From Planctomycetaceae bacterium (GTDB taxonomy: Bacteria; Planctomycetota; Planctomycetia; Planctomycetales; Planctomycetaceae), in the NCBI GenBank assembly GCA_014762625.1, contig JABURQ010000033.1:1-42950 (forward strand): DNA of 42,950 bases, written 5' to 3'. The translations under genes were made by a program, and so were the position numbers. Below the pieces are notes generated by a model, which made no database searches, was not told where the DNA came from, and saw only the letters and a list, made by a program, of their open reading frames with translations. Shown in pieces: positions 3,002 through 36,746 of this stretch (the first letter of the stretch is position 1; each line of letters opens with the position of its first letter).

Positions 3002-4873
3002 TCAGCGGATTCGTTCCATGCGCGGAATATTGGGATAGAACGGAGCCCGCATTTTGGGATAGCTTTTGTCTTTCTGGAGGCCGCCCTGATCGACCTGCCA
3101 GTGATAAGTAATCGGATAACCTTCTCCGCCGTTCAAAAACGGAACGCCGTGGGGCCAGTAGATAAAGAAGGCTTTGCCCAGCATCGCATGTCGGGGGACG
3201 GCGTGAGTATCGTCCCAGAGTCGGCTGTCGAGGCTGGCGGGGCTGTTATCGCCCAGCACAAAGTATTCATCACTCTTAAGTTGGGGGAATTCAACTGAGT
3301 ATTCGTGTTTGAGGTAGAGTTCGCCGTACTTCTCGGGTTCGGCGAGCGCGAACATCAGATCGGAGCGGGAGACCCGTTCGCTGAAGTCGAATTGATCGCC
3401 GAAATCCCGTTCGTCCGATCGGCGTTGCATGCGTTCCATCTGGATGCGAATGCTTTGTTCGGCCCGGTAAAAGATGTCACGCATCAGTTTGAGTTGAGAG
3501 ACCGACAGTTCGGCATCCTGAACGGCGATCCCCGCGGGAGACAAATCCCGATTCGTCGGGAGACTCGTTGCGGGTGCGTCGTATTCGCCGCGCGTGGGGA
3601 AGGGGATTAATTTCCCGTCGATCCATAAATTCAAGCGGTGATCGACATTGGAGAAAATGAGATGATGAGAGCCCGCACCCAGGGGCGAGGTTTGCACTTC
3701 GTCCAGGACCTTTTGTTGTTCGAGTGCGTGATCGAAATATTCGAGGGACACTTTACCCGACTTGAGGTCGAAGCGGCATTGGTAGTCGCGGATCCCTTCA
3801 GTCAATTCCAGCAGCAACTCCCCTCGTTCACCGGTGTCGGTGATATCCACATGACACGAGAAGGTCAGATCGCCGACCCAGTAGACTCCAGTTTCGTTGA
3901 CTCCGTAAGTCCGCGGCGATTGGGTCTCGTTATAACCGCAAAAGTCGCTGACCAGTTTGGGGGCGGGATCCTTCTCGAAGGGGAGTACGGGATCGTTCAT
4001 CACGGCTCCCCACGCTTCTTCGTCGGGCACGAAATGGCGATAACGAAGCCATCGCGGAGAGGTCGCGGATTCGTTGCGAGTGATGGCGTAGGTACGATTT
4101 TCGATGTCTGGTTTCCACCCGTTGGAATCGAGTTTCAAACCCGCCGCCGTTTCCTCGGAATGATTGTGTTCGACCGCCTGCCAGCGTTCCGGCCATCCAT
4201 TTTCGAGAAGGAGTGTCTCGGGACGATCGTTGTCGTACACGATCATCTGCAAGGTCAGTTGTTTATTGGGATCCTGTTTGCGGAGGATGTTCCATTCATC
4301 GGTTTCGTTTTTCCGCGCGTAGACATCTCCCCCGTCGATCATCAGATATTCGTTCGGCAGACCGACCAGTCGTTTGATGAAGTTGCGCATCGGTTCTTCG
4401 GGATTTTTGAAAACGACCACATCCCAGCGTACGGGATCGCTGACTTCATAAGGAAACTTGTTGACGAGGATTCGATCGCCGTGAAAGACAGGAGCATCTT
4501 TGACATCGTTGATAAAGCGACAATTCGGGCAGACCGACGATTCGATTCGCGCGTTGGGAATTAACGATTCCGAATCACCGTTCACTTCCTGGCTGGCGCC
4601 GATGTGATAATGCCAGCGGCATTGCTCGCAATCGATTTCCTTGTGTCGCCCATTGAGTGTTTCGGCCATCGATCCGGTCGGAATGACGAAGGCTTCCGCC
4701 TCAAACGTGCGAAACAGAAAAGCCAGAATGAACGCCACCACCAGCGACTCGATCGTCTCTCGAGCCGGCGAGGGTTGAGCGTATTTGCTTTTGGGCTTCG
4801 GCTTGGCGGACGGCGCTGTTTTGGGGAGATTGATCGAGATTTTTTTGAACTTTGACTGACTCATCAAAACCAT
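3002..4873 (-). CDS. lepB: Signal peptidase I with zinc-ribbon and beta-sandwich-like insertions (paralog 1)
   Basis: Signal peptidase I (family S26) cleaves signal peptides from exported proteins at the outer face of the membrane. The protein has 623 residues, about twice the usual length. After a Pro/Lys-rich cytosolic tail there is one TM segment (about 41-56). The catalytic Ser is S68 in PTGSMA and the general-base Lys is K167 in NFIKRLVGLP. The conserved C-terminal box YFVLGDNS is at about 537-544. Two insertions are unusual. CxxC pairs at 82/85 and 115/118 sit just after the Ser and look like a zinc ribbon. A beta-rich stretch at about 325-470 resembles a LamG/concanavalin-type sandwich (HHLIFSNVDHRLNLWIDGK). 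ATG codons at 4873 and 4864 are both possible starts. It is probably co-transcribed with the paralog and lepA upstream. Confidence 0.93.
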   Translation of the reverse strand: MVLMSQSKFKKISINLPKTAPSAKPKPKSKYAQPSPARETIESLVVAFILAFLFRTFEAEAFVIPTGSMAETLNGRHKEIDCEQCRWHYHIGASQEVNGDSESLIPNARIESSVCPNCRFINDVKDAPVFHGDRILVNKFPYEVSDPVRWDVVVFKNPEEPMRNFIKRLVGLPNEYLMIDGGDVYARKNETDEWNILRKQDPNKQLTLQMIVYDNDRPETLLLENGWPERWQAVEHNHSEETAAGLKLDSNGWKPDIENRTYAITRNESATSPRWLRYRHFVPDEEAWGAVMNDPVLPFEKDPAPKLVSDFCGYNETQSPRTYGVNETGVYWVGDLTFSCHVDITDTGERGELLLELTEGIRDYQCRFDLKSGKVSLEYFDHALEQQKVLDEVQTSPLGAGSHHLIFSNVDHRLNLWIDGKLIPFPTRGEYDAPATSLPTNRDLSPAGIAVQDAELSVSQLKLMRDIFYRAEQSIRIQMERMQRRSDERDFGDQFDFSERVSRSDLMFALAEPEKYGELYLKHEYSVEFPQLKSDEYFVLGDNSPASLDSRLWDDTHAVPRHAMLGKAFFIYWPHGVPFLNGGEGYPITYHWQVDQGGLQKDKSYPKMRAPFYPNIPRMERIR

Positions 4874-4958
4874 TCATCAAAAAAAGAATGTGGCTTCTGT
4901 CATACCTGAATCAACACGTCGGCGTTTCAAGAGATTGGGAAGAATAGGCGACCAGCCT

Positions 4959-6614
4959 CTATCTCACAAACCTGATTCGTGAAAAATCGGGACAACGGTA
5001 AGTCCATTGCCACTTCCCCCAGCCTATTCTCTTTTGTGTGGAAGGTAAATGCACGAGAAAAGGCTTTCCTATCAGGAGTTTACGTGGAACGGTCGGCTGC
5101 TCCCATAACCGGGAATCGGAAGAAACCCGGCTGTTATCTCCCAGAACAAAATAATGACCGTCGGGGATCTGATAAGGAATTTCTGAGCCGTGCATCCCGG
5201 AACCGCCGGTGTAATGAATATCGCGAAAGAGTCTTAAAGAACCGATTTCAAAGGGGGTTGTCCCCGAGATTCGGGCGACGGAAAGTCTTTCGACGGAGTT
5301 CTCTTTCATCGCCGTTCTTGACAAAGATTCCCGAAAGATTTCCCGGCCGTTAATGGCGACCAGAATCTGATCGTCGAACGAACTCATCTCGACGACAAAC
5401 TGATTAAGTGGCATTTTGAGCTGGGCCTGATGTCGATTTTCGAGTTCCTTTCCGGAATGTAAGGTGGCGGTTGCTGCCGTCAGGTCGAGGTGACACTGAC
5501 AGGGGCCGGCTGAGCTTCCCAATTCGATCATCACGGTTCCGGTTTGTTGATCGGGTTGAATGCTGGCTTCCAGGAAAAAATCATGCACGACGGCGGGTTG
5601 GTGATCCGGCACTTCGTGGTTGTACGCCAGAAAGTCAGAGACCGTCACCTGTCGCGATTCCTGAAACAGTGTTTGCAGTGCATCCCGGTAGCTCGGAGAG
5701 GAGGATAAGTCGGTGAGCTTTTCCATCGTGGAAGGGGACAATGCTCCCGTGGCGATCAGACACCCACGATCCCAACGCACGCCGGGGAATCGGGGTTCAG
5801 GAGTGAATGGAAACGTCGATTCCGGTGGAGCGAATGCGGGGGCGATGGTCGCCGCGATCTCTGTGGAAAGACAGACGGTCGTTTCCTGATGCCCGCCGAA
5901 CCGAACGGTCTGCCGATAGGTGAGCCAGTCCTCCTCACCAAGCGAAGGTTCGTATCTCCAGGTGGTCCCGTTTGGCGACCATCCGCTATCGGGGGAGTCG
6001 GTCGTCCAGCGAGGTTCCCAGGTGTCATCGGAGGAGGGAAGAAAAGACTGGTCGAACAGAGGAACGCGCAACGCGCGTTGTTCGGCGAGTGATTTCCGGG
6101 CGATTTCCCCATCAATCCAGACATTCCCATCGCGGATAGCCAGCGATTCTCCCGGAAGTCCGGCGACTCGTTTGATATAGGTTTCGAGAGGATCGTTCGG
6201 ATTTCGGAAGACGATCACTTCCCAGCGTTTCGGGTCTCGAAACGAACAGGCGTTTTTCCAGACGAGCAGATGGTCGCCCCGATTGACGGGACGCTCGGAT
6301 AAGTCAATCTCCGCCGCATAACAGTTGGGGCAAATCGCCCAGTCTCCCGCTTCGTGATGAGAGTCTAAATCGAATTCGGTTCCGACCGCGAAGGTAAACT
6401 CGCATTCTGGACAGACCGCTCTCTTTTGCTGACCGTAGTAGTGGGGAGCCATCGATCCTGTGGAAATCAGATACCCTTGCAGCAGAAAAGTTCGCATCAG
6501 AAGAACGGCGATTAACAGGGAGAGAAACAGATCGCACACCTGACGCATGCCGCTGAGGAAACCTGCGGAGCGTGACTCCCGCATGGCTGCATGAGGCGGT
6601 GGGTCGGTCATCAT
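4959..6614 (-). CDS. lepB: Signal peptidase I with zinc-ribbon and beta-sandwich-like insertions (paralog 2)
   Basis: This second S26 signal peptidase has 551 residues and is clearly paralogous to its downstream neighbour. A hydrophobic anchor spans about 25-48. The catalytic Ser is S54 in STGSMAP and Lys is K148 in YIKRVAGLPGE. The GDNS box is at about 492-495. CxxC pairs at 68/71 and 95/98 follow the Ser, as in paralog 1 but with closer spacing. A beta-rich insertion at about 340-465 (FVVEMSSFDDQILVAINGRE) matches the sandwich-like region of the other copy. The first TM and insert sequences have diverged strongly, so substrate preference may differ. It begins 24 bases after the stop of lepA, and the next lepB follows after 85 bases, so all three look like one operon. 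Confidence 0.93.
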   Translation of the reverse strand: MMTDPPPHAAMRESRSAGFLSGMRQVCDLFLSLLIAVLLMRTFLLQGYLISTGSMAPHYYGQQKRAVCPECEFTFAVGTEFDLDSHHEAGDWAICPNCYAAEIDLSERPVNRGDHLLVWKNACSFRDPKRWEVIVFRNPNDPLETYIKRVAGLPGESLAIRDGNVWIDGEIARKSLAEQRALRVPLFDQSFLPSSDDTWEPRWTTDSPDSGWSPNGTTWRYEPSLGEEDWLTYRQTVRFGGHQETTVCLSTEIAATIAPAFAPPESTFPFTPEPRFPGVRWDRGCLIATGALSPSTMEKLTDLSSSPSYRDALQTLFQESRQVTVSDFLAYNHEVPDHQPAVVHDFFLEASIQPDQQTGTVMIELGSSAGPCQCHLDLTAATATLHSGKELENRHQAQLKMPLNQFVVEMSSFDDQILVAINGREIFRESLSRTAMKENSVERLSVARISGTTPFEIGSLRLFRDIHYTGGSGMHGSEIPYQIPDGHYFVLGDNSRVSSDSRLWEQPTVPRKLLIGKPFLVHLPSTQKRIGWGKWQWTYRCPDFSRIRFVR

Positions 6615-6638: not shown

Positions 6639-8441
6639 TCAGTCTTCTTCAGAAGCATCCAACACACTGAGGAATGCCTTTTGAGGAATTTCCACTTCCC
6701 CGAATTGTTTCAGCCGCTTCTTTCCTTCTTTCTGCTTCGCCCACAACTTGCGTTTGCGGGTGATGTCACCCCCGTAACATTTGGCCGTCACATTCTTGCG
6801 CAACGCCTTGATGGTTTCGCGAGCGATGATCCGTCCCCCGATCGCGGCTTGCAGCGGGATCTCGAACATGTGTTTCGAGATTTCTTCCTTGAGACGTTTG
6901 ACGAGACCTCGTCCCCGTCGATCTGCTTGAGAGCGATGGACGATTGTGGAAAGCGCGTCGACGCGATTTCCTTTCACGAGGATATCCATTTTGACCAGAT
7001 CGGCCTGTCGAAATCCGATGATTTCGTAATCCATCGTTCCGTAGCCGCGGGTGAGGCTTTTCAATTTGTCGTGCATATCGTACACGACTTCCGCCAACGG
7101 CAGCTCCCAAGTGAGCTGGGCTCTCTGAGGTCCCAGAAATTCGGTATTCACGTAGATGCCGCGGCGGTCCGAACATAACTGCATTATCCCACCGATATGT
7201 TCTGACGGCGTAATGAATTGAACCTTCGCAAATGGTTCTCGAAACTCATCAATGACGCCGGCGTCCGGCACTTCCTGGGGATTATCGATCGTGACCACTT
7301 CGCCGTTCGTTTTCAGAATTTCATAGGTCACGTTGGGAGCGGTCTGGATGAGATCGATATCCTGCTCGTCTTCGAGCCGTTGTTGCACGATTTCCATATG
7401 CAACATGCCCAGGAAGCCGCAACGAAAACCGAAGCCGAGGGCGTCGCTGGTTTCCGGTTGGAAGGAGAAGCTGGAATCATTCATGCTGAGTTTCTGCAAC
7501 TCGCCGCGCAGCTTCTCGAAGTCGGTTGCATCGATCGGATACATTCCGCAGAACACCATCTGCTTGGGTTGTTGATATCCGGGGAGAGCGGTTTGGGCGC
7601 GATTGCCGCTCTCGGTGACGGTATCCCCGATATGCACATCGCCGAGTTCCTTAATGCCGGTCAGGAGATAGCCGACTTGTCCCGGTCCCAACTCCTGACA
7701 GGTTTTCATACCCGGGCGGAATTGGCCGATCTCCAGGATGTCATGCTCGCCGCCATTTTTCATGAAGGTGATTTTCTGCCCCTTGCGAATCGTTCCCTCT
7801 TTGACGCGAACGTAGGTGATGACACCTTTGTAAACATCGTACTTGGAATCGAAGACCAGAGCTCGGAGCGGCGCATCGGCCTCTCCTTCGGGAGGCGGGA
7901 TACGTTCCACAATTGCATTCAGCACATCTTCCACGCCCTGTCCGGTTTTGGCCGAGACGAGCAGTGCTTCTTCGGGATCGAGACCGATGATCGTTTCGAT
8001 CTCTTCCAGGACCTCTTCCGTCCGGACGACCGGCAGATCGATTTTGTTGATCACGGGCAGAATGGTGAGGTCAGCATTGACGGCGGCATAAGCATTCGCC
8101 ACCGACTGGGCCTGGACCCCCTGAAACGCATCCACGAGGAGCAGAGCTCCCTCGCAGGCTGCCAGCGAGCGAGAGACTTCATAATGAAAGTCAACGTGGC
8201 CGGGCGTATCGATCAGGTTCAATTCGTATTTTTCGCCCTGGTACTCATAATTGATGGCGACGGTCCGCGCCTTGACGGTAATTCCACGTTCCCGTTCGAC
8301 ATCCAGATCATCGAGCAGTTGTTCTTTAAACTCACGTTGGGTGATCGCTCCCGTCTTCAGCAAAAACTGATCGGCCAAGGTGCTCTTACCATGGTCGATA
8401 TGGGCGACGATCGAAAAGTTACGAATATGTTTGTTGTCCAT
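6639..8441 (-). CDS. lepA: Elongation factor 4 (back-translocating GTPase LepA)
   Basis: LepA/EF4 is a ribosome-associated GTPase related to EF-G, with proposed roles in ribosome biogenesis and in recovering stalled translation. The 600-residue length and domain order are canonical: GTPase domain with P-loop AHIDHGKST (about 13-21), RGITVKA switch, DTPGH and NKID; domain II; the EF-G III/V-like domains; and the LepA-specific C-terminal domain with YGGDITRKRKLWAKQKEGK. The gene heads a minus-strand run with two lepB genes, 24 and 85 bases apart. This matches the lepA-lepB order known from Escherichia coli. I see no clear Shine-Dalgarno sequence. The stop is TGA, and the long open frame on the opposite strand is a shadow. 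Confidence 0.98.
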   Translation of the reverse strand: MDNKHIRNFSIVAHIDHGKSTLADQFLLKTGAITQREFKEQLLDDLDVERERGITVKARTVAINYEYQGEKYELNLIDTPGHVDFHYEVSRSLAACEGALLLVDAFQGVQAQSVANAYAAVNADLTILPVINKIDLPVVRTEEVLEEIETIIGLDPEEALLVSAKTGQGVEDVLNAIVERIPPPEGEADAPLRALVFDSKYDVYKGVITYVRVKEGTIRKGQKITFMKNGGEHDILEIGQFRPGMKTCQELGPGQVGYLLTGIKELGDVHIGDTVTESGNRAQTALPGYQQPKQMVFCGMYPIDATDFEKLRGELQKLSMNDSSFSFQPETSDALGFGFRCGFLGMLHMEIVQQRLEDEQDIDLIQTAPNVTYEILKTNGEVVTIDNPQEVPDAGVIDEFREPFAKVQFITPSEHIGGIMQLCSDRRGIYVNTEFLGPQRAQLTWELPLAEVVYDMHDKLKSLTRGYGTMDYEIIGFRQADLVKMDILVKGNRVDALSTIVHRSQADRRGRGLVKRLKEEISKHMFEIPLQAAIGGRIIARETIKALRKNVTAKCYGGDITRKRKLWAKQKEGKKRLKQFGEVEIPQKAFLSVLDASEED

Positions 8442-8882: not shown

Positions 8883-10634
8883 ATGTCTGATACAAAACGG
8901 AATGCTGGTCTGATCACAGCCATTCTGGTGGTCTGCATGCTGTTATCTGGTTGTCAAACGACCAATTGGAGGCAGGCAGGTTTCACGCCGGGGAGCCTTG
9001 CGCCCTCACAAAACGGAAGTGGCGACACGGAGATCGATCTCGGGCTGCCCTCAGATTCTCTCTCCGCAGACGATCCGCCTCCTCAGACTTACGAAACCCA
9101 ACGCCCTCCCTCGGAACAGCCTCAAGAGACTCCGAACACTCTGGAGGAACTGTCCGTTCCCCAGGCACGCCATTTGTCGATTCCTCCCTTGCGCGGTGCC
9201 ATCATTCTCGGGCGTTCCACATCAGTCCCGTTCCCCGAAGGGAAGCGGTCCATCCCTCGTCCACAATCACTCGCCGGTGAGCCGACGTTGCCGCGTGGAG
9301 CCCGAGAACTCAAACCGCAACCTCTCCCCCTGACGACTGCGCCCGATCCGAAGTCTCTGAAAGAACCGAGTGGAGAATTCTCGCTGGGAGAGCCGGAAGA
9401 AGTTCTGGGAACCGATGAAGAACAGGACGCTTTCGATTTACCGCCTCTCGTCTCCGACGATGAGTTGAGAGAGCGCTTGAACCTTCCTCAGGAAACAGAC
9501 AGGAAACAAGACGTGACGTCGGATACCAACGAGCTTGGCCCGTCGCTTCCGCTGATTGAAACTCCCGATATTGAAGCCAAGATATCTGAAGAAATCCCGG
9601 AGTTTACCGTACAGTTGCCGGAGACGATGTGGGTGGGAGAAGTGACGTCGATAGAGGTCTTCATCAAGGCTCCCAAAGGGAAAAACTGGCAACACCTCGA
9701 TCTGGTCTTGAAATTGGGTGAGGATTTGATTTCCGCCGCCGAACCTCAGACCGACCGACTGTCCATTCCCCTGCTGAAAGGTGGAGAGACTCGTAAAGTG
9801 GCTCTCGAATTTCAAGCGGTCACCTCGGGAACTCACGAACTTGAACTGGCGCTGTCCGACGCCGATCGAGAACTCCAATGGAAGAAACTGAAACTTCAGG
9901 CCAAACCCCGAATTCTGGTGACGCATCTGATGGGGCCCGAAGAAAAACCGTTGGGAGGTCGGGCGGAATATACGTTGCGCCTTGAAAATGTTTCGACAGA
10001 CGCCATCGGGCCGATTCGGGCAGTCCTCGAATTTGACGGCACTCTGATTCCGATGGAAGCTTCCGCGGGAGCGGAACAAAAACCGGGTCAGTTGATCTGG
10101 TCGTTTCCGGTTCTTCATCCCGGCGAGCAAATCCTGCTACAGGCCGAGTATCAATGCCCTGTTGCCACCGGTAGCACATGTGTTTCGTCGCACGTGACAA
10201 TCGATAACGGTCCCGAACAAAGTCGCCGTACGTGTCTTTCGGTGATCGAGCCTCGGGGCACCTTGGTCGTGGAATTGCTGGATCGTGATGATCTGACTCA
10301 CGTGGGGCGCGAATTAACGGGAGTCGTCCGGGTGACGAATCGCGGCTTGCAAGCTGCAAAACGAGTCGAGATTCAGTTTTCCTACCCTAAAAATCTCTCT
10401 CTCGTTCAGGTGCAGGCCAAACGAGACCAACAGGATCTCGACATCGAACAAGAGGGCGAAACGGGAGTCGCGATCGTGATACTGAAGTCGCCGGTCCCCG
10501 CAGACCAGAGCGTCGATGTTGAATTTCTGTTCTCGGCGGATGATGCCGGCGATCAGAAATTGATGGCCCAAGTGAAAGCCGAAGGAATCGACAAACCGGT
10601 CACCGCAAGCGAGCCGTTCACGGTGACTCCGTAA
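8883..10634 (+). CDS. Lipoprotein with DUF11-type repeat domains
   Basis: This is a 583-residue predicted lipoprotein: a short hydrophobic stretch is followed by the lipobox LSGC, with the acylated Cys at about residue 24. A long Pro/Ser/Glu-rich, probably disordered linker spans about 30-240. The rest consists of beta-sandwich repeats of the DUF11 type, seen in AEYTLRLENVSTDAIGPI and RELTGVVRVTNRGLQAA. Such repeats are common in planctomycete surface proteins. The protein probably sits on the periplasmic face of a membrane or on the cell surface as a structural or binding protein. No catalytic motif is visible. The start ATG has AAGGT about 8 bases upstream. The gene is divergent from lepA and converges on the DinB-family gene with a 5-nt gap. 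Confidence 0.82.
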   Translation: MSDTKRNAGLITAILVVCMLLSGCQTTNWRQAGFTPGSLAPSQNGSGDTEIDLGLPSDSLSADDPPPQTYETQRPPSEQPQETPNTLEELSVPQARHLSIPPLRGAIILGRSTSVPFPEGKRSIPRPQSLAGEPTLPRGARELKPQPLPLTTAPDPKSLKEPSGEFSLGEPEEVLGTDEEQDAFDLPPLVSDDELRERLNLPQETDRKQDVTSDTNELGPSLPLIETPDIEAKISEEIPEFTVQLPETMWVGEVTSIEVFIKAPKGKNWQHLDLVLKLGEDLISAAEPQTDRLSIPLLKGGETRKVALEFQAVTSGTHELELALSDADRELQWKKLKLQAKPRILVTHLMGPEEKPLGGRAEYTLRLENVSTDAIGPIRAVLEFDGTLIPMEASAGAEQKPGQLIWSFPVLHPGEQILLQAEYQCPVATGSTCVSSHVTIDNGPEQSRRTCLSVIEPRGTLVVELLDRDDLTHVGRELTGVVRVTNRGLQAAKRVEIQFSYPKNLSLVQVQAKRDQQDLDIEQEGETGVAIVILKSPVPADQSVDVEFLFSADDAGDQKLMAQVKAEGIDKPVTASEPFTVTP

Positions 10635-18846: not shown

Positions 18847-20997
18847 TCAGTGAACCAGCACAAATTCGCTGGAATTCAGATACGCCCAGAAGACATCCTG
18901 GAGGGATTGAGTGTAAGCATTCTTCTGGTTGCGGCTGTTGGCAACGTTTTGAGCCACCATCTTGCGGATGAGCGACATTTCCCGGTCGGTCGGATACCGC
19001 GTGAGGGCCGACAAAGCCAACTGCTCAACTTTCCGTTCATCATTGATTTTGGAGTTCATCAGTTTGCCGAAGAACGTCGGTGACTTCGCGCTGATCGCTT
19101 CTTCGATCATCTCGCCGTTCATCAGCATCAACGCCTGAGCGATCGTTCCCGAGAAGTGCGTATCCTCGTTATTCTCTTCGGTTTCATAGGCGTGGATGAA
19201 TTGTTGCAGCCATTGGCTCCGTTGATGTTCAATCTCTTCCCAGGAACCGTTCTGGGCTCCCAGAACGCCGGTCGCGACCAGGAGCGAGTTATAAACCTGC
19301 TCGGCGGACATGCTTTTGACGTAAACGCGGCTGAAGAGTGGAAGTTCTCCCAGCTCTGGATTATCGATCTGGTTCTGTTCGGTCAGGCGGCTCGTTCGTC
19401 CGTACGCGTCGGAAAGACAAATCCAGCGCATCAGTCGTTTCTGGTCGTAACCCGAGGCGACGAATTCCCTCGCCAGACGATCCAGCAGTTCGGGATGCGA
19501 CGGAGGATTGTGCGGTCCCATATCATCGACGGGATTGGTAAAGCCGAATCCGAAGAAGTGTTTCCAAGTTCGATTGACGAACGCTTCGGCGATTTGCGGT
19601 TTCTCTCCAGCAGCGAGCAGTCTGGCCAGTTCCTGCCGGCGATTGGTCCCCGCACTCTCATCGACTTTGACGCCGTTGTAGATTGGGTAGGCGGGTTGAA
19701 CCCGTCCTTGTCTGTTTTCAAAAAAGGTCGGGCCTTCCGCGTCTCGTTTCGTGACCAGAGAGACGGTTTGCAGCATGTTGCCTGTGGAAGGATCTCGCCG
19801 GCGCTTGACCACCTTTTCGGTCTGCTTGAAGAAACTGTTCAGTTCCCAGAACTGATTCTGCTTCGAGTCGTTGAACGGGTGGTCGTGACACTGAGTGCAT
19901 TGCACGTTCGTGCCCAGAAACAGCCGCGAGGCGATTGCCGTCGCGGGGACCGCTTGATTGTTGACGTGAGCCAAGAGAAAGCCGCTGGCTTGATTATCCT
20001 GGACGGAACCTTCGGCGGCGATGACGGCGGCCACCATCTCATCCCACGGTCGATTGTCACGGAAACTGTCCCGCAGGTATTTCGTCAGTGCGGTTCGATA
20101 TTCATCGCGGTCGGGATTTCTCCCGACCATTAAATTGGCCCAGATGGTCGACCAGTTGGTAATGAATTCCGGTCGTTGTAACAGCGTATCGACAACTTTC
20201 TCTCGTTTTCGCGGATCGTTGCTGGCGAGAAATTCGGCCGCCTCATCCGCCGTCGGAATCTGACCGATCAGATCCAGATGCACGCGCCGCAACCACTCCG
20301 AATCCTCGGCGACCGGAGAAGGTGTGATACTGTTCGCGACCCAGTTACTGTGTAATTCATCGTTGACATAAGCGAGGATCGTGGGATCGGACGAGCCTGC
20401 CGCGGGAATCTCTTGCAGTTCCTTCTCGGCAGGATTCGAGTTCGCGTTTTGAAGGGGCTTCTGTGAGGGCGTCAGATCGGCGGTGTCATCAACGGCGACG
20501 ATCGCCTGGATTTTGGCAGGCTGGCGTTCGGCGGCGGGTGTCTCGGCTTGGTTTTCAGCCAAAGTTTCCCGATCAGCGGAAAGCTCGGGAGACATATTGG
20601 CGGTCACTTCATCTGAGGAAGACGATGAAGGATCCGCAGAGAGAAAGACTCCCACAATGATCGCCAGTGCCGAGACAAGACCTGCGATCCAGGCGGAACG
20701 CAGAATGCGCGAAGGCTTCAGGCCGGCTGGAGCAGGGGACGTGGTGGGGATCGTAGCGGCGGGAATCGTGCATGCGGAACTTGTTTGAGAGAGTTCCGCA
20801 TCGGTTTCCGAACCGACCGCCGTATCCCAGTACAACATACCGTGCAACAGCATATATTCCCGGTACAGTTTGCGAGCTTTCTCGCTGTCGGTCAGCAATT
20901 CTTCCAGACGGACGACTTGCTCGGCGGACAGACGATCTTCGCAAGCCGCTTCCATCATCTTCAGCAGTTCGGTTTGTCCGGAATGTGTCGTACTCAT
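18847..20997 (-). CDS. Anti-sigma-like domain fused to PSCyt2 (DUF1549) and PSD1 (DUF1553)
   Basis: This 716-residue membrane protein has three parts. Residues 1-60 resemble the N-terminal anti-sigma region of planctomycete FecR-like proteins (LSAEQVVRLEELLTDSEKAR, LYREYMLLHGML). A TM helix (about 104-121) and a Ser/Ala/Pro-rich linker follow. The periplasmic part has a PSCyt2 domain from about 205 (NWVANSITPSPVAEDSEWLR) with a CTQCH heme-c-like motif at about 367-371. A PSD1 domain then spans about 450-700 (NRTWKHFFGFGFTNPVDDMG, HNPPSHPELL). Its ATG overlaps the sigma factor stop by one base (TGATG), so they are translationally coupled. I infer that it holds the sigma factor and senses something through the periplasmic domain. 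The enzymatic role of these domains is not established. Confidence 0.88.
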   Translation of the reverse strand: MSTTHSGQTELLKMMEAACEDRLSAEQVVRLEELLTDSEKARKLYREYMLLHGMLYWDTAVGSETDAELSQTSSACTIPAATIPTTSPAPAGLKPSRILRSAWIAGLVSALAIIVGVFLSADPSSSSSDEVTANMSPELSADRETLAENQAETPAAERQPAKIQAIVAVDDTADLTPSQKPLQNANSNPAEKELQEIPAAGSSDPTILAYVNDELHSNWVANSITPSPVAEDSEWLRRVHLDLIGQIPTADEAAEFLASNDPRKREKVVDTLLQRPEFITNWSTIWANLMVGRNPDRDEYRTALTKYLRDSFRDNRPWDEMVAAVIAAEGSVQDNQASGFLLAHVNNQAVPATAIASRLFLGTNVQCTQCHDHPFNDSKQNQFWELNSFFKQTEKVVKRRRDPSTGNMLQTVSLVTKRDAEGPTFFENRQGRVQPAYPIYNGVKVDESAGTNRRQELARLLAAGEKPQIAEAFVNRTWKHFFGFGFTNPVDDMGPHNPPSHPELLDRLAREFVASGYDQKRLMRWICLSDAYGRTSRLTEQNQIDNPELGELPLFSRVYVKSMSAEQVYNSLLVATGVLGAQNGSWEEIEHQRSQWLQQFIHAYETEENNEDTHFSGTIAQALMLMNGEMIEEAISAKSPTFFGKLMNSKINDERKVEQLALSALTRYPTDREMSLIRKMVAQNVANSRNQKNAYTQSLQDVFWAYLNSSEFVLVH

Positions 20998-21563
20998 CAA
21001 CTCGATTCCACAGCCGCGACTTCGCGACGAATACAGTCCATCAATGCCCGACGAATTCGCCCGAGAGATTGATAGACGGAATTAATGGGACGACCGACAA
21101 CTTCGGCGGCCCCTTTTCCCGATTGTCCTGGAGCATAGCGGATTTGCACCAGTTCCAGGTCCTCGGGGTTCAACTTCTGTAAACAATGATTTAACGCTTC
21201 TCGTCGCAGTTCCCACTCGGTCGATTCTTCGAGTGATTCCTCAGCGATCTGCTGCATCAGGTCGTCGCTGAAGTAATGCTTGTCGCGACGATGTCGGTCG
21301 AGCCATTTCAAAACTTCGTAGCGGGCGATTTGACAGGCCCAGGCTTTGAAGTTTGTCCCCGGCTCGAATTGTTCGAATTTATTCCAGATTACCAGGTTGG
21401 TTTCCTGCAGAATTTCTTCCGCCTCGACCGGATTGGAAATCTGGGAGAGTATAAACAGGAAGACTGGGCGTTGGTGGCGGGTAAATTCCTTGATGAACTC
21501 AGCATCGGGAATGGTCGCCGACGATTGACCGGATTGAGTTTGCTGATTCTCGCTATCGTTCAC
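20997..21563 (-). CDS. ECF-type RNA polymerase sigma factor
   Basis: This is a 188-residue sigma-70 factor of the ECF group, of the type found widely in Rhodopirellula and relatives. Region 2 is FIKEFTRHQRPVFLFILSQI..EAEEILQETNLVIW and FKAWACQIARYEVLKWLDRHRR. Region 4 is CLQKLNPEDLELVQIRYAPG with a helix-turn-helix, KGAAEVVGRPINSVYQSLGRIRRALMDCI. I place the start at the GTG at 21563 because the open frame upstream reads through the terminator and has no family resemblance. It starts 37 bases after that terminator. The next gene is its probable membrane anti-sigma partner and overlaps by one base. Target promoters are unknown; a GTG start and weak ribosome site may keep levels low. Confidence 0.92.
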   Translation of the reverse strand: MNDSENQQTQSGQSSATIPDAEFIKEFTRHQRPVFLFILSQISNPVEAEEILQETNLVIWNKFEQFEPGTNFKAWACQIARYEVLKWLDRHRRDKHYFSDDLMQQIAEESLEESTEWELRREALNHCLQKLNPEDLELVQIRYAPGQSGKGAAEVVGRPINSVYQSLGRIRRALMDCIRREVAAVESS

Positions 21564-21600
21564 GGGCAACGAACTCTTTTGCCTGTTTGGGAACTGTGAC

Positions 21601-21632
21601 AAAAAACGGGGGGCGATTGAAACCGCCCCCCG
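21601..21632 (-). terminator. Strong rho-independent terminator after the DUF1501 gene
   Basis: On the minus strand CGGGGGGCG (21632-21624) pairs perfectly with CGCCCCCCG (21615-21607) over an 8-nt loop and is followed by six T (21606-21601). It ends the DUF1549/1553-DUF1501 unit. It also lies just upstream of the sigma factor start. Confidence 0.9.
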
Positions 21633-21661
21633 GAATTTATTCAGTTGACGTCGGTCGTAGA

Positions 21662-22960
21662 TTAGCCGATCAGTTCGGCAATCGGGGGCTGACCGTTGGC
21701 AATCTTCATCGGACGCCCACGTTTTGAGGTGTGGACGGTGTCCAGCGGTATGCCGAGAGCGTGAGCCACTGTGGCCCAAATGTTACCCGGCACGTAGCTT
21801 TGACTTTCGATGCCGATTCCGTCTTTGTCGGTAGCACCGATGGCTTGGCCACCTTTGAGGCCACCACCACCAATGACGGACGACCAACTGGCGGCCCAGT
21901 GGTCACGACCGACGTTCTGGTTGATACGCGGAGTCCGACCGAATTCACCCATCCAGACGATGACGGTGTGTTCGAGCAGACCGCGTTGCTTCAGATCGGC
22001 GACCAGGGCGCTCATTGCCTGGTCGAGTTGAGGCAGACGTTGATCGCGAAGCGTGTTGAAGACGTCGTTGTGGAGGTCCCAGCCCCCCATGTCGACTTCG
22101 ACAAACGGGACACCGGATTCCACTAAACGACGAGCCAGCAGACAGCCTTCGCCGAATCGATTCGCGCCCATGCCCATCCCACCGGCACCACCGGTGACAC
22201 CGTACATTTGCTTGATCTGATCCGGTTCCTGGCTGACTTCGAACGCTTGCATCTGTTCGGAAGTCATCAGGTTGACGGCTTTCTGGTACACTTCCTGGTG
22301 AGCTTTCGGGAAGTCGCCGCGATCCGAGTTGATGAAGTTCGACTCGATTTCGCCGAGCATCGCCAGACGCTGTCCGAGGCGACCGGTTTCATTGCTGCGA
22401 CCGGCGTTGCGGATTTGTCCGTTGCTTTGTACCACGAACGGGGCGTGCCCCATGCCGAGGTAGCCCGGTCCCATGCTGTTTCCGCTGACGGAGACAAAGC
22501 TCGGGATTTCGAGATCCTTACGGGTGTCGGCCAACTCGTAACTGACCACCGATCCGAAGGTCGGGTGGATCACAGTCGGGTTGGGGACGTATGAGGTGTG
22601 CATGAAGTAGCGGCCACGACCGTGGTCCGCTTCACGCGTGCTCATCGAACGAACGATGGAAAGTTCGTCCATCACGTTTGCAGTTCTCGGCATGTGTTCC
22701 GAAATCTGCATATCCCCTTTGGTCGAGATCGGCTGGAATTCACCGCCATTTTTCGACCCCGGTTTCAGGTCCCAGATATCGATTGTGGGAGGACCACCAC
22801 TCATCCAGAGCAGGATACAGGCTTTTTGATTCTTGCGAACCGTTTGAGCGTTGGCCTTCACGTGGTCAATGAACTGCATGGCGGGCAGAATCGTTGCCCC
22901 GGCAGCCATGTGACGCATGAAGTGCCGACGGTTCATGCCATCGGGAACAGGAAGATTCAT
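21662..22960 (-). CDS. DUF1501 protein, Tat-exported
   Basis: This 432-residue protein is of the DUF1501 family, which has an alkaline phosphatase/sulfatase-like fold and in planctomycetes nearly always accompanies DUF1549/DUF1553 genes. It has a twin-arginine signal, [19 protein letters not shown], from residue 9, so it is folded before export. Motifs include [20 protein letters not shown] near the N-terminus, [36 protein letters not shown] and [15 protein letters not shown]. It ends in the usual DUF1501 block around GHALGIP (here [11 protein letters not shown]). GGAG lies 8 bases before the ATG at 22960. It follows its DUF1549/1553 partner by 74 bases on the same strand and is closed by a strong terminator. 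Function is unproven; a periplasmic hydrolase partner is likely. Confidence 0.95.
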
Positions 22961-23034
22961 GGTAAGTCTCCGAAGTAAAAAGGGTTGATTTCAGTGATCC
23001 GCGAGCGGAGCTTGCGGAGGTATTTCAAAAGTGA

Positions 23035-24717
23035 TTAGTGATTGACGATAAACTCGTTCGAGTTCAACAACGCCCATAACAGATCCTGATAAGCATAGGC
23101 TTTGTTGGGACCTGAGGAACGAAAGAGTTTCGAGATCGAGGATAATTCGCGACCGTTGGGGTAGCGAGACAAAGTCGCGAGATAAATTTCTTTCACTTTG
23201 GCAACATCGTCTCCCGGCGAAGCGATCGTTTCGGACAGAAAACTGCCTCGCTCCAGACTGGTCGCTCGGGTGACCAGTTCGCCATTCATCATCATCAATG
23301 CTTGAGGGATGCTGCCGTTGAACGACGTGCTGGAATCGTTTTCATCGTCCCCAAACAGGGTGATGAATTCTCCCAACCAACGCTGACGTTGTTGTTCGGC
23401 GGCTTCGAAATTGCGGGAGTTAGTTTTGTGGGCGTTGGTGGCGATGATCAGCGAATCGTAAAGCTGTTCCACTTCCAACGCTTTGACGTACATATGGCTG
23501 AAGAGGGGAATCTCTCCGGCTGCCGGATTATCGATTTCATTCTCTTTGTTGAACTGACTGGTCAGGTTGTACGCCTCTGTGTTCGCGATCCAGCGGATCA
23601 ACTGTTTAACGTCGTAGCCGCTTTCCACGAAGGAACTCGTCAACAGTTCCATCACTTCCGGATGCGACGGGGGATTATGAGGACCCATATCGTCAACAGG
23701 TTTGGTGAAGCCGTATCCGAAGAAGTGTCCCCACATGCGATTCACCATCGCGGCGGCCACCATTCGGTCTTCGTCCTTCTGCAGCAGTTCCCCGAATTCC
23801 TGACGTCGATCGACGTGAGGTGCCGGGTTGATTTTATGGCTGTTGAAGACGGGGTAAGCCGGGCGAACTTCGCCGTTACGTCGTTCGTAGAAGACTTCCT
23901 GCGAATCCACATTTCGCCAAGTCACTTCGACAAAGTCGACGACCATGCGTCCTGAGTCTTCATCGTATTTACGTTGAATGTCTTTGCCGGTCTGGCGGAA
24001 AATACTGTTGTACGACCAGAATTGGTCCTGCTTCCAGTCATTGAAGGGATGGTCGTGACACTGGGTGCATTGCACCTGGATGCCGAGGAACAGGCGTGTG
24101 AAGTCGGCAGTCAGTTGAACGCCTTCATCCGGCATTTCCATCTGAGCCAGGATAAAGTTGACCGCTCCGTTTTCTTCAAAGTTTCCTTCCGCGGTGACGA
24201 TATCTTTGACGACTTCGTTCCAGGGGCGGTTGCGGGCGAAGACTTCGCGGTAAAATTTGTCCATCCCGAGACGACTCACTTCATCCCGGTCTCCCCGGGT
24301 GCGGAAACCGCGACCGATACTGTGGTTGGTCCAGATCGTCGTCCAGTTACGGACATAGTCAGGATTGTCGAGTAGTTGATCGATCATTTTCGACCGTTTA
24401 GCGGGATCCTTGGACTTGATGAACTCCCGGGCGACTTCGACCGGGGGAATGTGTCCGACGACGTCGAGGTAAACGCGACGCAACCATTCGCCATCGGAAG
24501 CAACTTCCGACGGTTTGATAAGATTGTCGTTCCAGGATCGACGAATCAGTTGATCGATTTCCTTGATCAGAACTTCGTTCGATCCGGTCGAGAATTCGGG
24601 TTCGTCAGCAGCCCGAGCCGTGGTGGCCAGACTTCCTGACAGCATCAGGATCACGCCGCAGAGGACGACCCCTTGGCTGAGAATTCGGGACATGGGAAAT
24701 TTTGCGGGCTTCATCAT
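23035..24717 (-). CDS. PSCyt2 (DUF1549) / PSD1 (DUF1553) exported protein
   Basis: This 560-residue protein has an N-terminal signal peptide (cleavage about residue 37, ARA-AD) and no anti-sigma region. The PSCyt2 domain starts at about 45 (LIRRSWNDNLIKPSEVASDG). It carries CTQCH at about 217-221, the heme-c-like motif of the family. PSD1 follows from about 320 (VNRMWGHFFGYGFTKPVDDM, HNPPSHPEVMELL) to LLNSNEFIVNH, the standard ending. It is paralogous along its whole length to the periplasmic part of the sigma-linked fusion. It heads a two-gene unit with the DUF1501 gene. AAGG lies about 8 bases upstream of the ATG at 24717. The family is a planctomycete hallmark; a role in redox-linked or carbohydrate breakdown has been suggested but is not shown here. 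Confidence 0.93.
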   Translation of the reverse strand: MMKPAKFPMSRILSQGVVLCGVILMLSGSLATTARAADEPEFSTGSNEVLIKEIDQLIRRSWNDNLIKPSEVASDGEWLRRVYLDVVGHIPPVEVAREFIKSKDPAKRSKMIDQLLDNPDYVRNWTTIWTNHSIGRGFRTRGDRDEVSRLGMDKFYREVFARNRPWNEVVKDIVTAEGNFEENGAVNFILAQMEMPDEGVQLTADFTRLFLGIQVQCTQCHDHPFNDWKQDQFWSYNSIFRQTGKDIQRKYDEDSGRMVVDFVEVTWRNVDSQEVFYERRNGEVRPAYPVFNSHKINPAPHVDRRQEFGELLQKDEDRMVAAAMVNRMWGHFFGYGFTKPVDDMGPHNPPSHPEVMELLTSSFVESGYDVKQLIRWIANTEAYNLTSQFNKENEIDNPAAGEIPLFSHMYVKALEVEQLYDSLIIATNAHKTNSRNFEAAEQQRQRWLGEFITLFGDDENDSSTSFNGSIPQALMMMNGELVTRATSLERGSFLSETIASPGDDVAKVKEIYLATLSRYPNGRELSSISKLFRSSGPNKAYAYQDLLWALLNSNEFIVNH

Positions 24718-34169: not shown

Positions 34170-34329
34170 GGTGTCTCTCCTGGAAGCTGGATGAATTCGT
34201 TGTTGTCCGATCTCCCTTCAAATTAGTCAGCGACTGATTGGATCGCAAGGCGCGAAAAATTAAACAGCCTCTTTCCGGGGCGTCGGGATTTGCTTACGAT
34301 CGCATCAGCCAACATTGATAAAACCCTAC

Positions 34330-34346
34330 CCCGCCTGAGAGGCGGG
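34330..34346. other. GC hairpin in the leader of the hydrolase gene
   Basis: CCCGCCT-gag-AGGCGGG forms a 7-bp stem with a three-base loop, 31 bases before the ATG at 34377. No T-run follows. It could shield the start region or act as a regulatory leader. Confidence 0.4.
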
Positions 34347-34376
34347 AATTTCCGATCAGAAATTGAAAGTTACAAC

Positions 34377-36746
34377 ATGCCCAGGTTTCGAGCCGTTTTA
34401 GCCGCCTCCTGTTTGATCGTGTTCTGCATTTCGATACTCGATGCACAGCGTGAAAACAAAAACAGCGAAACGTCGGAAACGTCCCCCATCGAGTCGGCGC
34501 TGCAGCGGCGAGTGATTGATCCAGAACTTCCCCTCAAGGAAGTCCAGGAATTTACGGAACAACGTGTTCTGCCGGTGCCCGAGTTTGAATCGATTCCGCA
34601 ATGGGAACTCTTTCAGCAGCAGACTCGAGAGCGACTCTTGAAGGAGGTGGTATTACGCGGCGCGGCGGCGGAATGGGCTCAAGCTCCGACCGTCTCTGAA
34701 GAAATTCAGGTCCGCGATATGGGAGACTACCTTCTCCGGAAATTGCGCTTCGAAGCGCTCCCCGGATTGTGGATCCCTGCGGTGATGTATGAACCGAAAA
34801 ACCTGAGTGGAAAAGCTCCCGTCTTCCTGAACGTCAACGGACATGACGGGACTGGGAAAGCGGCTGAGTACAAGCAGATCCGCTGTATCAATCAGGCCAA
34901 ACGGGGCATCATTGCACTCAATCTGGAATGGGTGGGAATGGGACAACTACGCACGCCCGGCTTCGTGCACTACAAAATGAACCAGCTCGATCTGTGCGGG
35001 ACGAGTGGTTTGGCGGTCCATTATCTCTCGCAAAAACGGGCGCTGGATATTCTCCTGCAACATCCCAACGCCGATCCCGAACGCGTCGGGGTCGCCGGCT
35101 TGTCGGGAGGTGGCTGGCAAACCATTTTTATCAGCGGGCTCGACGGACGAGTGACGTTATCCAATCCGGTTGCCGGTTATTCAAGTTTCAAGACGCGCGC
35201 TCGCTACACATCCGACCTCGGCGATTCCGAACAGACTCCCTCCGATCTGGCGACCGTCGCCGATTACAGTCTGCTGACGGCGATGCTGGCTCCGCATCCC
35301 GCTTTGCTGACCAACAACGTCGCGGACAATTGTTGTTTCAAGGCCGAACACGCCCAACCTCCGCTCGTTCACGCGGCGGCTCCGTTATACGAACTTTACG
35401 ATCGTGAAGCCTGGTTGAGAACGCACGTTAATCACGATCCGGGGACCCATAATTTTCAACGCGATAATCGCGAACAGCTTTACAAAATGATCGGCGATCA
35501 TTTCTTCGGCGGATTGCAGCCGGTTGTGGCGCACTACAACACGGCGGCGATGGCTGAGAACCAGATCACCGTTGAAGAATTGCGTCAGTTTCTCGGGAGC
35601 GATGCGAGACCTTACGTTGAAAAACAGTCGGGGCTGTTCGCCGACGTGCGCCGATTGATGAAACAGCAAGCTCCCGCTTTGAAGCGTCCCGATCTTCTGA
35701 TTCTCGTCAGCCGACATTTCGACGGACGGACTCCCGAAAACCTTGCGTCCACCTTGGTCCCTGTAAAATCGGGGGAAGTGGCTTTGTCCGAGTTGCTGAC
35801 GCTGACGCCGCTGAAGATGCCGAATTTTCAGGAAGCGTATTCCGCGACCGAGATCGACTGCACCGACGAGCTGAAAACTGTAGAAGAGCTCGACGTTCCG
35901 CTGCCGGAAAACAATCTCGATTTTCATCAGCTCGCGATGGCTCTCTCCAATGGGATCGCGAAGTCTCCACTTCCGCCGGGGAAAGCACCACGGTCCTGGC
36001 TGCTTCAACATCGTCAGGAGCTTCGCGATCTTGTCAGCTATCACGATTATGATGTTTACGCATTGCTCGAAAAGGAAGAGCAGCACGAGCATCTGACGGT
36101 GAAACACTGGTGGTTACGAGTAGGAGGGTTGTGGACCGTGCCAGCGACCGAATTCATTCCGGAGACCAACCCGGTTGATTGTGTCGTGATGCTTGCCGAC
36201 GAAGGTCGCGGTTCGTTGTCTGGAGAGGTCTCGAATGCGATCGAGAACGGTTCGCGTGTGCTGGCGATCGATCCGTTTTACTTCGGCGAATCGAAAATCT
36301 CCCAACGCGACTTTCTCTACGGCCTGCTCGTGTCCACCATCGGAGAACGAAATCTCGGCATCCAGGCTTCTCAAATCGCCGCTATTTCTCAATGGGCGGG
36401 GCAGTCTCAACCGACACTCAAGGTGACTGTTTCCGCGTTCGGTCCCCGAATGTCTTTGATGGCCCTCGTGGCATCCGCTTGTGAACCGCAGACGGCGAAT
36501 CGGCTGGTCTTGCAGGACTCCTTCGCGACACTGAAGCAGGTCATTGAGCAGGATTTAACCGTTCAGCAGATGCCGGAACTGTTCTGTTTCGGGCTGCTGA
36601 AACAATTCGACATTCCATTCATGATCGCTTTGAGTGGTGCCGAAAGTTTGCAAGCCACGGGCAACATCGAACGCCAGCAGACGGAATGGCGGGAATTTCT
36701 GGAAGAAGCAACCGCCGCAGGACCTGAGGTGAGTCTCACGGAATAA
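34377..36746 (+). CDS. Tandem alpha/beta hydrolase (acetyl xylan esterase-like), exported
   Basis: This 789-residue protein is predicted to be exported (MPRFRAVLAASCLIVFCISIL). The first alpha/beta hydrolase domain carries the nucleophile S243 in GLSGGG, with VNGHDGTGKAAEYKQ and LEWVGMGQL in the strands before. HDPGTHNFQRD (about 353-363) is a candidate for the catalytic His. This part resembles prolyl oligopeptidase / acetyl xylan esterase-type proteins common in planctomycetes. From about residue 570 a second hydrolase-like domain follows (VVMLADEGRG, AIDPFYFGES). At the nucleophile elbow it has VSAFGPR (about 684), not GxSxG, so it looks inactive. Substrate unknown; a polymer ester is likely. 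The stop is 3 nt from the convergent dehydrogenase stop. Confidence 0.85.
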   Translation: MPRFRAVLAASCLIVFCISILDAQRENKNSETSETSPIESALQRRVIDPELPLKEVQEFTEQRVLPVPEFESIPQWELFQQQTRERLLKEVVLRGAAAEWAQAPTVSEEIQVRDMGDYLLRKLRFEALPGLWIPAVMYEPKNLSGKAPVFLNVNGHDGTGKAAEYKQIRCINQAKRGIIALNLEWVGMGQLRTPGFVHYKMNQLDLCGTSGLAVHYLSQKRALDILLQHPNADPERVGVAGLSGGGWQTIFISGLDGRVTLSNPVAGYSSFKTRARYTSDLGDSEQTPSDLATVADYSLLTAMLAPHPALLTNNVADNCCFKAEHAQPPLVHAAAPLYELYDREAWLRTHVNHDPGTHNFQRDNREQLYKMIGDHFFGGLQPVVAHYNTAAMAENQITVEELRQFLGSDARPYVEKQSGLFADVRRLMKQQAPALKRPDLLILVSRHFDGRTPENLASTLVPVKSGEVALSELLTLTPLKMPNFQEAYSATEIDCTDELKTVEELDVPLPENNLDFHQLAMALSNGIAKSPLPPGKAPRSWLLQHRQELRDLVSYHDYDVYALLEKEEQHEHLTVKHWWLRVGGLWTVPATEFIPETNPVDCVVMLADEGRGSLSGEVSNAIENGSRVLAIDPFYFGESKISQRDFLYGLLVSTIGERNLGIQASQIAAISQWAGQSQPTLKVTVSAFGPRMSLMALVASACEPQTANRLVLQDSFATLKQVIEQDLTVQQMPELFCFGLLKQFDIPFMIALSGAESLQATGNIERQQTEWREFLEEATAAGPEVSLTE

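What the first reader, a model, noticed from the sequence alone, without database searches (positions are those of the whole stretch)
3002..6614. Two signal peptidases I with beta-sandwich-like insertions between the catalytic core and the last box
Both paralogs keep Ser (S68 / S54), Lys (K167 / K148) and the GDNS box. Between Lys and GDNS they carry about 340 extra residues, including a beta-rich stretch ending in a strand pattern like LWIDGK or VAINGRE that resembles LamG/concanavalin sandwiches. S26 enzymes with insertions exist, but a lectin-like domain in both copies of a tandem pair is, to my knowledge, little described. It may place the protease near surface glycans or select substrates.
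Basis: partly seen in the sequence, partly recalled or inferred. Interest (0 to 1): 0.6.

Follow-up and report, generated by a model that had tools for sequence, protein, structure and literature searches.

The report
Signal peptidases with lectin-fold cap domain
Two neighbouring genes encode type I signal peptidases, the enzymes that trim exported proteins, in which the side domain known from E. coli gives way to a large lectin-like beta-sandwich; the same design recurs in most sampled Planctomycetota, and what the extra domain does is not known.

Summary
Two tandem genes downstream of lepA encode type I signal peptidases, A (623 aa) and B (551 aa), with intact Ser/Lys dyads. They are the only PF10502 proteins found in this genome. 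AlphaFold2 models (pLDDT 88 and 84) show a separate concanavalin-like sandwich in each (A ~208-470, B ~183-468), where E. coli LepB carries its non-catalytic domain II ("cap"). Nearest solved folds include CBM66, GH16 enzymes and L-type lectins (Z 13-15).

The cap is not peculiar to this pair. Its profile finds 134 of 149 sampled Planctomycetota genomes; in 118 of 120 fetched loci it lies between boxes D and E of one S26 frame. A and B form two deep clades with homologous caps, so the cap predates the duplication. The ribbon is more restricted.

Glycan binding is neither shown nor excluded; conserved cap residues lie mostly in loops and at strand ends. Most likely the cap is a scaffold or substrate-shaping domain of the housekeeping enzyme. 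My library searches found no description. Presence outside the phylum could not be tested.

The parts
3002..4873 (-). gene A: type I signal peptidase (623 aa) with ribbon and ConA-like cap
   Evidence: ORF; PF10502 102.4 bits; TIGR02227 96.9 bits; AF2 model pLDDT 88.0, pTM 0.86
4959..6614 (-). gene B: type I signal peptidase paralogue (551 aa) with ribbon and ConA-like cap
   Evidence: ORF; PF10502 105 bits; TIGR02227 101.1 bits; AF2 model pLDDT 84.4, pTM 0.83
4700..4768 (-). A residues 36-58, single N-terminal helix, taken as the membrane anchor
   Evidence: helix 36-58 in the model; membrane role inferred from the sequence and LepB topology
4517..4630 (-). A residues 82-119, four-cysteine ribbon C82-x2-C85 ... 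C115-x2-C118, between catalytic Ser68 and box C
   Evidence: Cys columns at least 90% conserved in 53 sequences; metal binding inferred
6318..6413 (-). B residues 68-99, four-cysteine ribbon C68-x2-C71 ... C95-x2-C98
   Evidence: the four Cys are invariant in 32 aligned sequences
3464..4252 (-). A residues ~208-470, concanavalin-like sandwich (cap), nested between box D and box E
   Evidence: CBM66 4azz_A Z 13.3, rmsd 3.0, 157 aligned
5211..6068 (-). B residues ~183-468, concanavalin-like sandwich (cap); an A-type cap profile leaves about residues 238-317 of B unaligned (extra sub-insert)
   Evidence: (8aa2_E Z 14.9; 4azz_A Z 13.8)
3299..3460 (-). A residues 472-525, mainly helical stretch after the sandwich; aligned B rows shown are shorter here
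   Evidence: helices 475-488, 503-511, 513-522; alignment
6639..8441 (-). lepA, 24 bases upstream of gene B; same gene order as lepA-lepB of E. coli
   Evidence: PF06421/PF00009; E. coli order

Best explanation
A and B are housekeeping type I (S26A, LepB-type) signal peptidases encoded as lepA-lepB(B)-lepB(A). One N-terminal helix anchors each to the inner membrane, with the catalytic domain outside. Ser68/Lys167 (A) and Ser54/Lys148 (B) cut signal peptides. In place of the E. coli-type domain II, each carries a nested concanavalin-like sandwich. A four-cysteine ribbon, probably binding zinc, is spliced in just after the catalytic-serine motif, probably beside the substrate cleft. I think it more likely than a lectin role (about 60:40) that the cap is a rigid scaffold that shapes access of pre-proteins or docks a partner at the membrane, and that the two old paralogues divide the exported proteins between them. 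Shown: architecture, predicted fold, homology of the two caps, occurrence across the phylum. Inferred: activity, topology, metal binding, cap function, division of labour. The confidence below is mainly for the architecture; the cap's job is the 60:40 call.
For: Only PF10502 proteins found in the genome at E 0.001 (completeness 99.99). Confident models: blocks of ten residues at pLDDT 89-98 over A 331-470, 59-96 over B 341-470. ConA-like neighbours at Z 13-15, together with LepB chains at Z 12.0-13.5 aligned across both ends of the same models. Insert sites against E. coli LepB: the ribbon lies between SMMPTL and GDFILV, the cap between boxes D and E. Cap profile in 134 of 149 phylum genomes; box D before and box E after it in one frame in 109 of 110 and 9 of 10 fetched loci. 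A-type cap profile finds 14 of 14 B caps given. Core-only tree gives two deep clades. A and B adjacent in 15 of 18 same-family genomes (my reading). In survey ORFs the dyad reads Lys in 105 of 105 and Ser in 87 of 87 located sites, but my patterns allowed only K or H, and S or A. In print, domain II is a non-catalytic 'cap' that varies in size and lacks motifs (PMC4049620, passages read).
Against: No experiment. Scaffold versus lectin rests only on where conserved residues fall by secondary structure. The ribbon is not universal: 47 of 84 survey ORFs with both Ser and Lys located have no CxxC between them, and it is missing from some same-class A homologues (L022; L121, L122). The 15 of 149 genomes without a profile hit include some with only compact S26 matches (G095, G142).
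Confidence: 0.8

Rival explanations
1. The cap is a working lectin. It binds an envelope glycan or a glycan on exported proteins, and so positions the peptidase or selects substrates.
For: Best Foldseek neighbour of A is the carbohydrate-binding module CBM66 (E 8.3e-8, rmsd 3.0, 19% identity); galectins, GH16 enzymes and L-type lectins are among the others. Some caps match the sugar-binding Pfam models PA14 and GLEYA weakly (6 of 42 each). The genome has 40 stretches of the ConA-like family PF06439.
Against: A shared fold shows no function, and the hit list mixes enzymes, lectins, sialidases and receptor-binding domains of toxins. Cap columns are less conserved than the catalytic core (1.85 against 2.63-3.21 bits). 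The most conserved cap residues (such as D310, Y314, N315, D335, D411, R465, D466, Y469) lie mostly in loops or at strand ends, and R465, D466, Y469 sit at the exit to the catalytic domain. A rim binding site is not excluded.
Confidence: 0.3
2. Only the normal S26 beta domain (E. coli domain II) expanded by disordered loops, with no separate sandwich.
For: Same insertion point as E. coli domain II, and domain II is known to vary in size (PMC4049620, passages).
Against: Confident strands across the insert; ConA-like matches at Z 13-15 covering 147-175 residues; conserved columns through the stretch.
Confidence: 0.04
3. The ConA-like cap is E. coli-type domain II enlarged by descent, not a foreign domain that replaced it.
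For: Same insertion point; both all-beta (PMC4049620). E. coli chains align over 165-178 residues of the A model, which may reach beyond the catalytic domain.
Against: No convincing sequence similarity in the cap region of the added E. coli row. A weak profile match points to PF06439 instead (prob 7.2%, score 25.7 against at most 17.9 in 30 column shuffles), which is itself not significant.
Confidence: 0.2

Closest known systems
Escherichia coli signal peptidase I (LepB; PF10502, TIGR02227; PDB 1t7d, 1b12, 1kn9)
   Same: Ser/Lys dyad, boxes B-E, gene order lepA-lepB; LepB chains among the structural neighbours of both models
   Different: 126 residues between Lys and GDN against 373 and 343 here; no four-Cys ribbon (S-K 55 against 99 and 94); one lepB at this place, not two
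Streptococcus pyogenes SipA, the S26 member whose paper names the non-catalytic domain a cap (PMC4049620)
   Same: two-domain plan with a cap of variable size between the two halves of the catalytic domain (passages read)
   Different: small cap, dyad positions taken by Asp and Gly, pilus role; no ConA-like sandwich in the passages read
CBM66 of Bacillus subtilis (PDB 4azz, 4b1m, 4b1l)
   Same: ConA-like sandwich; rmsd 3.0 over 154-157 residues of A's cap, Z about 13
   Different: 8-19% identity; no significant sequence-level match of the cap to any solved chain; not part of a protease; binding residues not compared
PF06439 (3keto-disac_hyd; ConA-like fold, recalled), abundant in this genome
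   Same: 40 matching stretches in the genome; the weak third hit of the cap profile in the genome is one of those ORFs (E 0.07)
   Different: none of 42 caps is listed under PF06439; profile comparison only suggestive

Membership tests
Type I signal peptidase (S26A / LepB) | Ser/Lys dyad with boxes B, C, D, E in order | tested here: met
   S68/K167 and S54/K148, GDNS boxes, PF10502 and TIGR02227 above cut-off
Type I signal peptidase (S26A / LepB) | catalytic-domain fold | tested here: met
   LepB chains at Z 12.0-13.5 aligned from A 57-60 to 623 and B 42-45 to 551, 27-31% identity
Type I signal peptidase (S26A / LepB) | N-terminal membrane anchor | tested here: inconclusive
   N-terminal helices A 36-58 and B 18-43 in the models; no membrane predictor was run, insertion inferred from the sequence
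Type I signal peptidase (S26A / LepB) | cleavage of signal peptides | not testable with these tools
   needs an assay
Concanavalin A-like lectin/glucanase fold | two-sheet sandwich superposing on solved members | tested here: met
   Z 13-15 over 147-175 residues (predicted models)
Concanavalin A-like lectin/glucanase fold | carbohydrate binding | not testable with these tools
   fold alone shows no function
Pfam LamG / PF06439 families | sequence match above the curated cut-off | tested here: not met
   0 of 42 caps (E up to 1) and 0 of 53 full proteins (E up to 0.01) list LamG or PF06439
Zinc ribbon | two CxxC knuckles | tested here: met
   both proteins; invariant in 32 and at least 90% conserved in 53 aligned sequences
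Zinc ribbon | match to a curated ribbon family | tested here: inconclusive
   Zn_ribbon_4 in 3 of 53, best E 0.0028; a zinc-finger model at 12.1 bits against a cut-off of 27 in B
Zinc ribbon | metal binding | not testable with these tools
   needs metal analysis; disulfides are possible outside the cytoplasm

The most novel reading that the evidence does not exclude
Planctomycetota run protein export through a signal peptidase with built-in sensing modules: a lectin-fold cap that reads an envelope or substrate glycan and, in part of the phylum, an extracytoplasmic zinc ribbon next to the active site that gates the substrate cleft. Where both ancient paralogues are kept, they would sort exported proteins between destinations.
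Probability: 0.13. Interest if true: 0.78.

Novelty: new variant of a known kind. Interest (0 to 1): 0.52.

Why it matters
Signal peptidase I is a near-universal enzyme, essential where studied and an antibiotic target (recalled). Most sampled members of a whole phylum appear to have rebuilt its non-catalytic part with a lectin fold, and part of the phylum has added a cysteine ribbon just after the catalytic serine. This gives the poorly understood cap domain of signal peptidases a testable case, and it bears on how Planctomycetota, known for large sets of secreted proteins (recalled), select and process exports. The pair here also gives two old paralogues whose substrate sets can be compared.

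Tried and rejected
Sequence search of the cap alone against solved structures gave nothing significant: profile best E 0.18 to a DNA clamp, with a laminin chain last of 14 rows at E 1.4; single sequence no hit at E up to 10. Pfam gives only weak matches to the cap: PA14 in 6 of 42 (best E 0.0079), GLEYA in 6 of 42 (best E 0.028), nine other families in one member each. PA14/GLEYA are sugar-binding folds (recalled); I did not follow them, as they match a minority and the fold search gave ConA-like neighbours. Profile comparison with PF06439 used 26 of the 40 stretches and 83 caps and is suggestive only. Plasmid records hold no match to A or to its cap.

The 15 of 149 phylum genomes without a profile hit were examined. 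All have PF10502. Five more (G031, G107, G125, G140, G156) have PF10502 split by about 0.6-1.0 kb in one frame. G095 and G142 list only compact S26 matches or short pieces; G128 has a compact best match and a split 927-aa frame. Whether these divergent caps are ConA-like was not tested. Several of the 134 hits are marginal (E 0.001-0.01).

Rows dropped. I fetched 120 of the 134 hit genomes, one hit each; the 14 not fetched are among the weakest and had no coordinates listed. L171 showed box E but no box D; L330, at a contig end, box D but no box E. One search found S26 ORFs by motif in 73 of 80 loci. One of the 86 ORFs (in L074) was left out of alignments and tree because my pattern caught a false motif; its true motif is ISTGSMA. 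L143 was labelled A by its motif but falls in the B clade; that row explains the second label change. L138 gave no cap segment, so 14 of 15 B rows were tested. In one search, Ser or Lys could not be located in 25 of 109 ORFs.

lepA lies directly upstream (under 1 kb, same strand) in 11 of 80 loci by my rule; in 60 of 80 no lepA was found in the stretch held, sometimes because the contig ends; the other nine have it elsewhere or could not be scored.

No comparison outside the phylum was possible. The one genome-contig scan kept the best 80 of 532 candidates, whose titles are Planctomycetota taxa or unnamed bacteria.

Papers: search listings only, unless stated. PMC4049620, PMC2881027, PMC12758564 and PMC12419801: passages read. 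Searches behind 'no description found': (top 20 of 32 seen).
Full report
What is there. On the - strand, in the order lepA (6639-8441), B (4959-6614), A (3002-4873), lie two signal peptidase I genes, with gaps of 24 and 85 bases. E. coli has the same order, lepA then lepB. A and B score 102.4 and 105 bits for PF10502, and 96.9 and 101.1 bits for TIGR02227. They are the only PF10502 proteins found in the genome at E 0.001. A search with PF00717 found two further ORFs: a 221-aa one, which I take for LexA (not checked), and a large ORF that I do not read as a signal peptidase. The dyad and box E are intact in both.

Two inserts. Added to the alignment, E. coli LepB (S91, K146, G273) shows both. 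Between SMMPTL and GDFILV, A and B carry about 40 more residues with two CxxC knuckles (S-K 99 and 94, against 55). Between box D and box E they carry 373 and 343 residues, against 126.

The fold. AlphaFold2 with alignments of 53 and 32 sequences gave mean pLDDT 88.0 and 84.4 and pTM 0.86 and 0.83. For A, Foldseek ranks CBM66 first (4b1m_A, E 8.3e-8, rmsd 3.0, 19% identity). VIA-align gives a C-terminal stretch of galactocerebrosidase Z 13.6, CBM66 Z 13.3 (157 aligned, rmsd 3.0) and the plant enzyme VvEG16 Z 13.3, all within A 210-468; rows within 1 Z are tied. It gives E. coli LepB Z 12.8 over 60-623. For B, Foldseek's first rows are a levan-utilisation protein, a galectin-like protein and CBM66 (E 5.5e-6 to 7.6e-6); VIA-align tops with the levan-utilisation protein (8aa2_E, Z 14.9, 154 aligned, rmsd 3.0), with ERGIC-53 at 14.3, CBM66 at 13.8 and LepB at 13.5. 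So each protein is a LepB catalytic domain with a separate ConA-like sandwich nested in it. Domain II of S26 enzymes is described as a non-catalytic cap that varies in size and lacks motifs (PMC4049620, passages); the sandwich takes that place.

How widespread. One scan of species genomes gave 80 loci; by motif I found 86 S26 ORFs in 73 of them. A profile of 42 caps (A4) hit 134 of 149 genomes drawn across the phylum, the window's own included, at E 0.01 or better; some hits are marginal. I fetched 120 of those 134, one hit each. In 109 of 110 and 9 of 10 weaker ones the cap ORF has box D before it and box E after it in the same frame; the two exceptions lack one of the boxes. The ribbon is less general: of 84 ORFs with both Ser and Lys located, 47 have no CxxC between them, 22 have two, and 15 have one, three, four or six. 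Of the 15 genomes without a profile hit, 12 still have long or split S26 ORFs whose caps I did not test. Cap and ribbon thus seem to have separate histories.

The pair. A and B homologues lie next to each other in 15 of 18 same-family genomes (my reading). In G003 they are apart on one chromosome; in G006 and G018 they are on different contigs, so adjacency is unknown there; in G017 the A gene runs off the contig. A tree built without either insert puts 71 A rows in one starred clade, and 15 B rows plus one mislabelled row in the other (quick method, 87 rows, 204 columns). B rows come from Planctomycetaceae, Isosphaeraceae and one Gemmataceae record, the last joined with a long-branch row, so the split is old. 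A profile of A caps alone finds all 14 B caps given to it (E 9e-25 to 1e-11), so the cap was there before the split. This explains why both copies have it.

Origin of the cap. Pfam gives only weak matches to 42 caps and sequence search of solved structures nothing significant. The genome has 40 stretches of PF06439. The third, weak hit of the cap profile in the genome (E 0.07) is one of those ORFs. Direct profile comparison is suggestive, not significant (prob 7.2, pairwise E 0.005, score 25.7; 30 column shuffles at most 17.9, reversed 16.1).

How it may work. Shown: architecture, predicted fold, homology of the caps, range within the phylum. Established for the family: a Ser/Lys dyad cleaves signal peptides on the outer face of the inner membrane. 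Inferred: the ribbon, whose first Cys follows the catalytic serine by 14 residues in both proteins, flanks the substrate cleft and binds zinc; the cap is held rigidly on the core. Among the most conserved cap residues (V212, D214, W231, W253, D310, Y314, D335, L336, N409, D411, P446, R465, D466, Y469), most lie in loops or at strand ends, and the last three sit where the cap returns to the core. The cap (1.85 bits) and the ribbon (1.83) are less conserved than the catalytic core (2.63-3.21); the C-terminal end of the protein has 2.04. That pattern fits a scaffold or docking domain better than one conserved sugar site, but lineage-specific glycan binding remains possible.

Limits. The statement that this is undescribed rests on the searches listed under Tried and rejected. 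The K. stuttgartiensis paper lists a single signal peptidase I and does not, in the passages I read, discuss its architecture (PMC2881027).

Noticed in passing
window 4517-4630 and 6318-6413: Four-cysteine ribbon (two CxxC knuckles) inserted between the catalytic-serine motif and box C of both peptidases. Across the phylum survey the CxxC count between Ser and Lys is 0 to 6.
   Followed up: partly
L160, L166, L172, L238, L250 (family f48 genomes): S26 enzymes with six CxxC motifs between Ser and Lys (S-K 153), perhaps several ribbons in series.
   Followed up: no
L181: A 438-aa S26 enzyme whose CxxC pair (CDSCGF...CPRCGY) lies inside the cap instead of after the serine.
   Followed up: no
L022/L148 (one gene), L121, L122; also L237, L263, L306: S26 enzymes that keep about the ribbon's length between Ser and Lys (96-117) but have no CxxC pair there: the insert may hold without metal.
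   Followed up: no
A residue 61 and B residue 47 (7 residues before the catalytic Ser): Where E. coli LepB has Pro84, A has Ala and B has Gly. From memory, a Pro here is linked to arylomycin resistance; not tested.
   Followed up: no
own genome, 40 stretches: Forty matches to PF06439 in one genome, a possible pool from which the cap could have come.
   Followed up: partly
window 8883-10634: 583-aa protein with a lipoprotein-like N-terminus and DUF11/CARDB-like matches below the Pfam cut-offs.
   Followed up: no
window 18847-24717: Two PSCyt2/PSD1 (DUF1549/DUF1553) proteins, a DUF1501 protein and a protein with sigma-70 region 2; from memory, typical planctomycete families.
   Followed up: no
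window 34290-36746: 818-aa ORF near an LptF/LptG-type permease and a redoxin, no Pfam match at E 1e-5.
   Followed up: no
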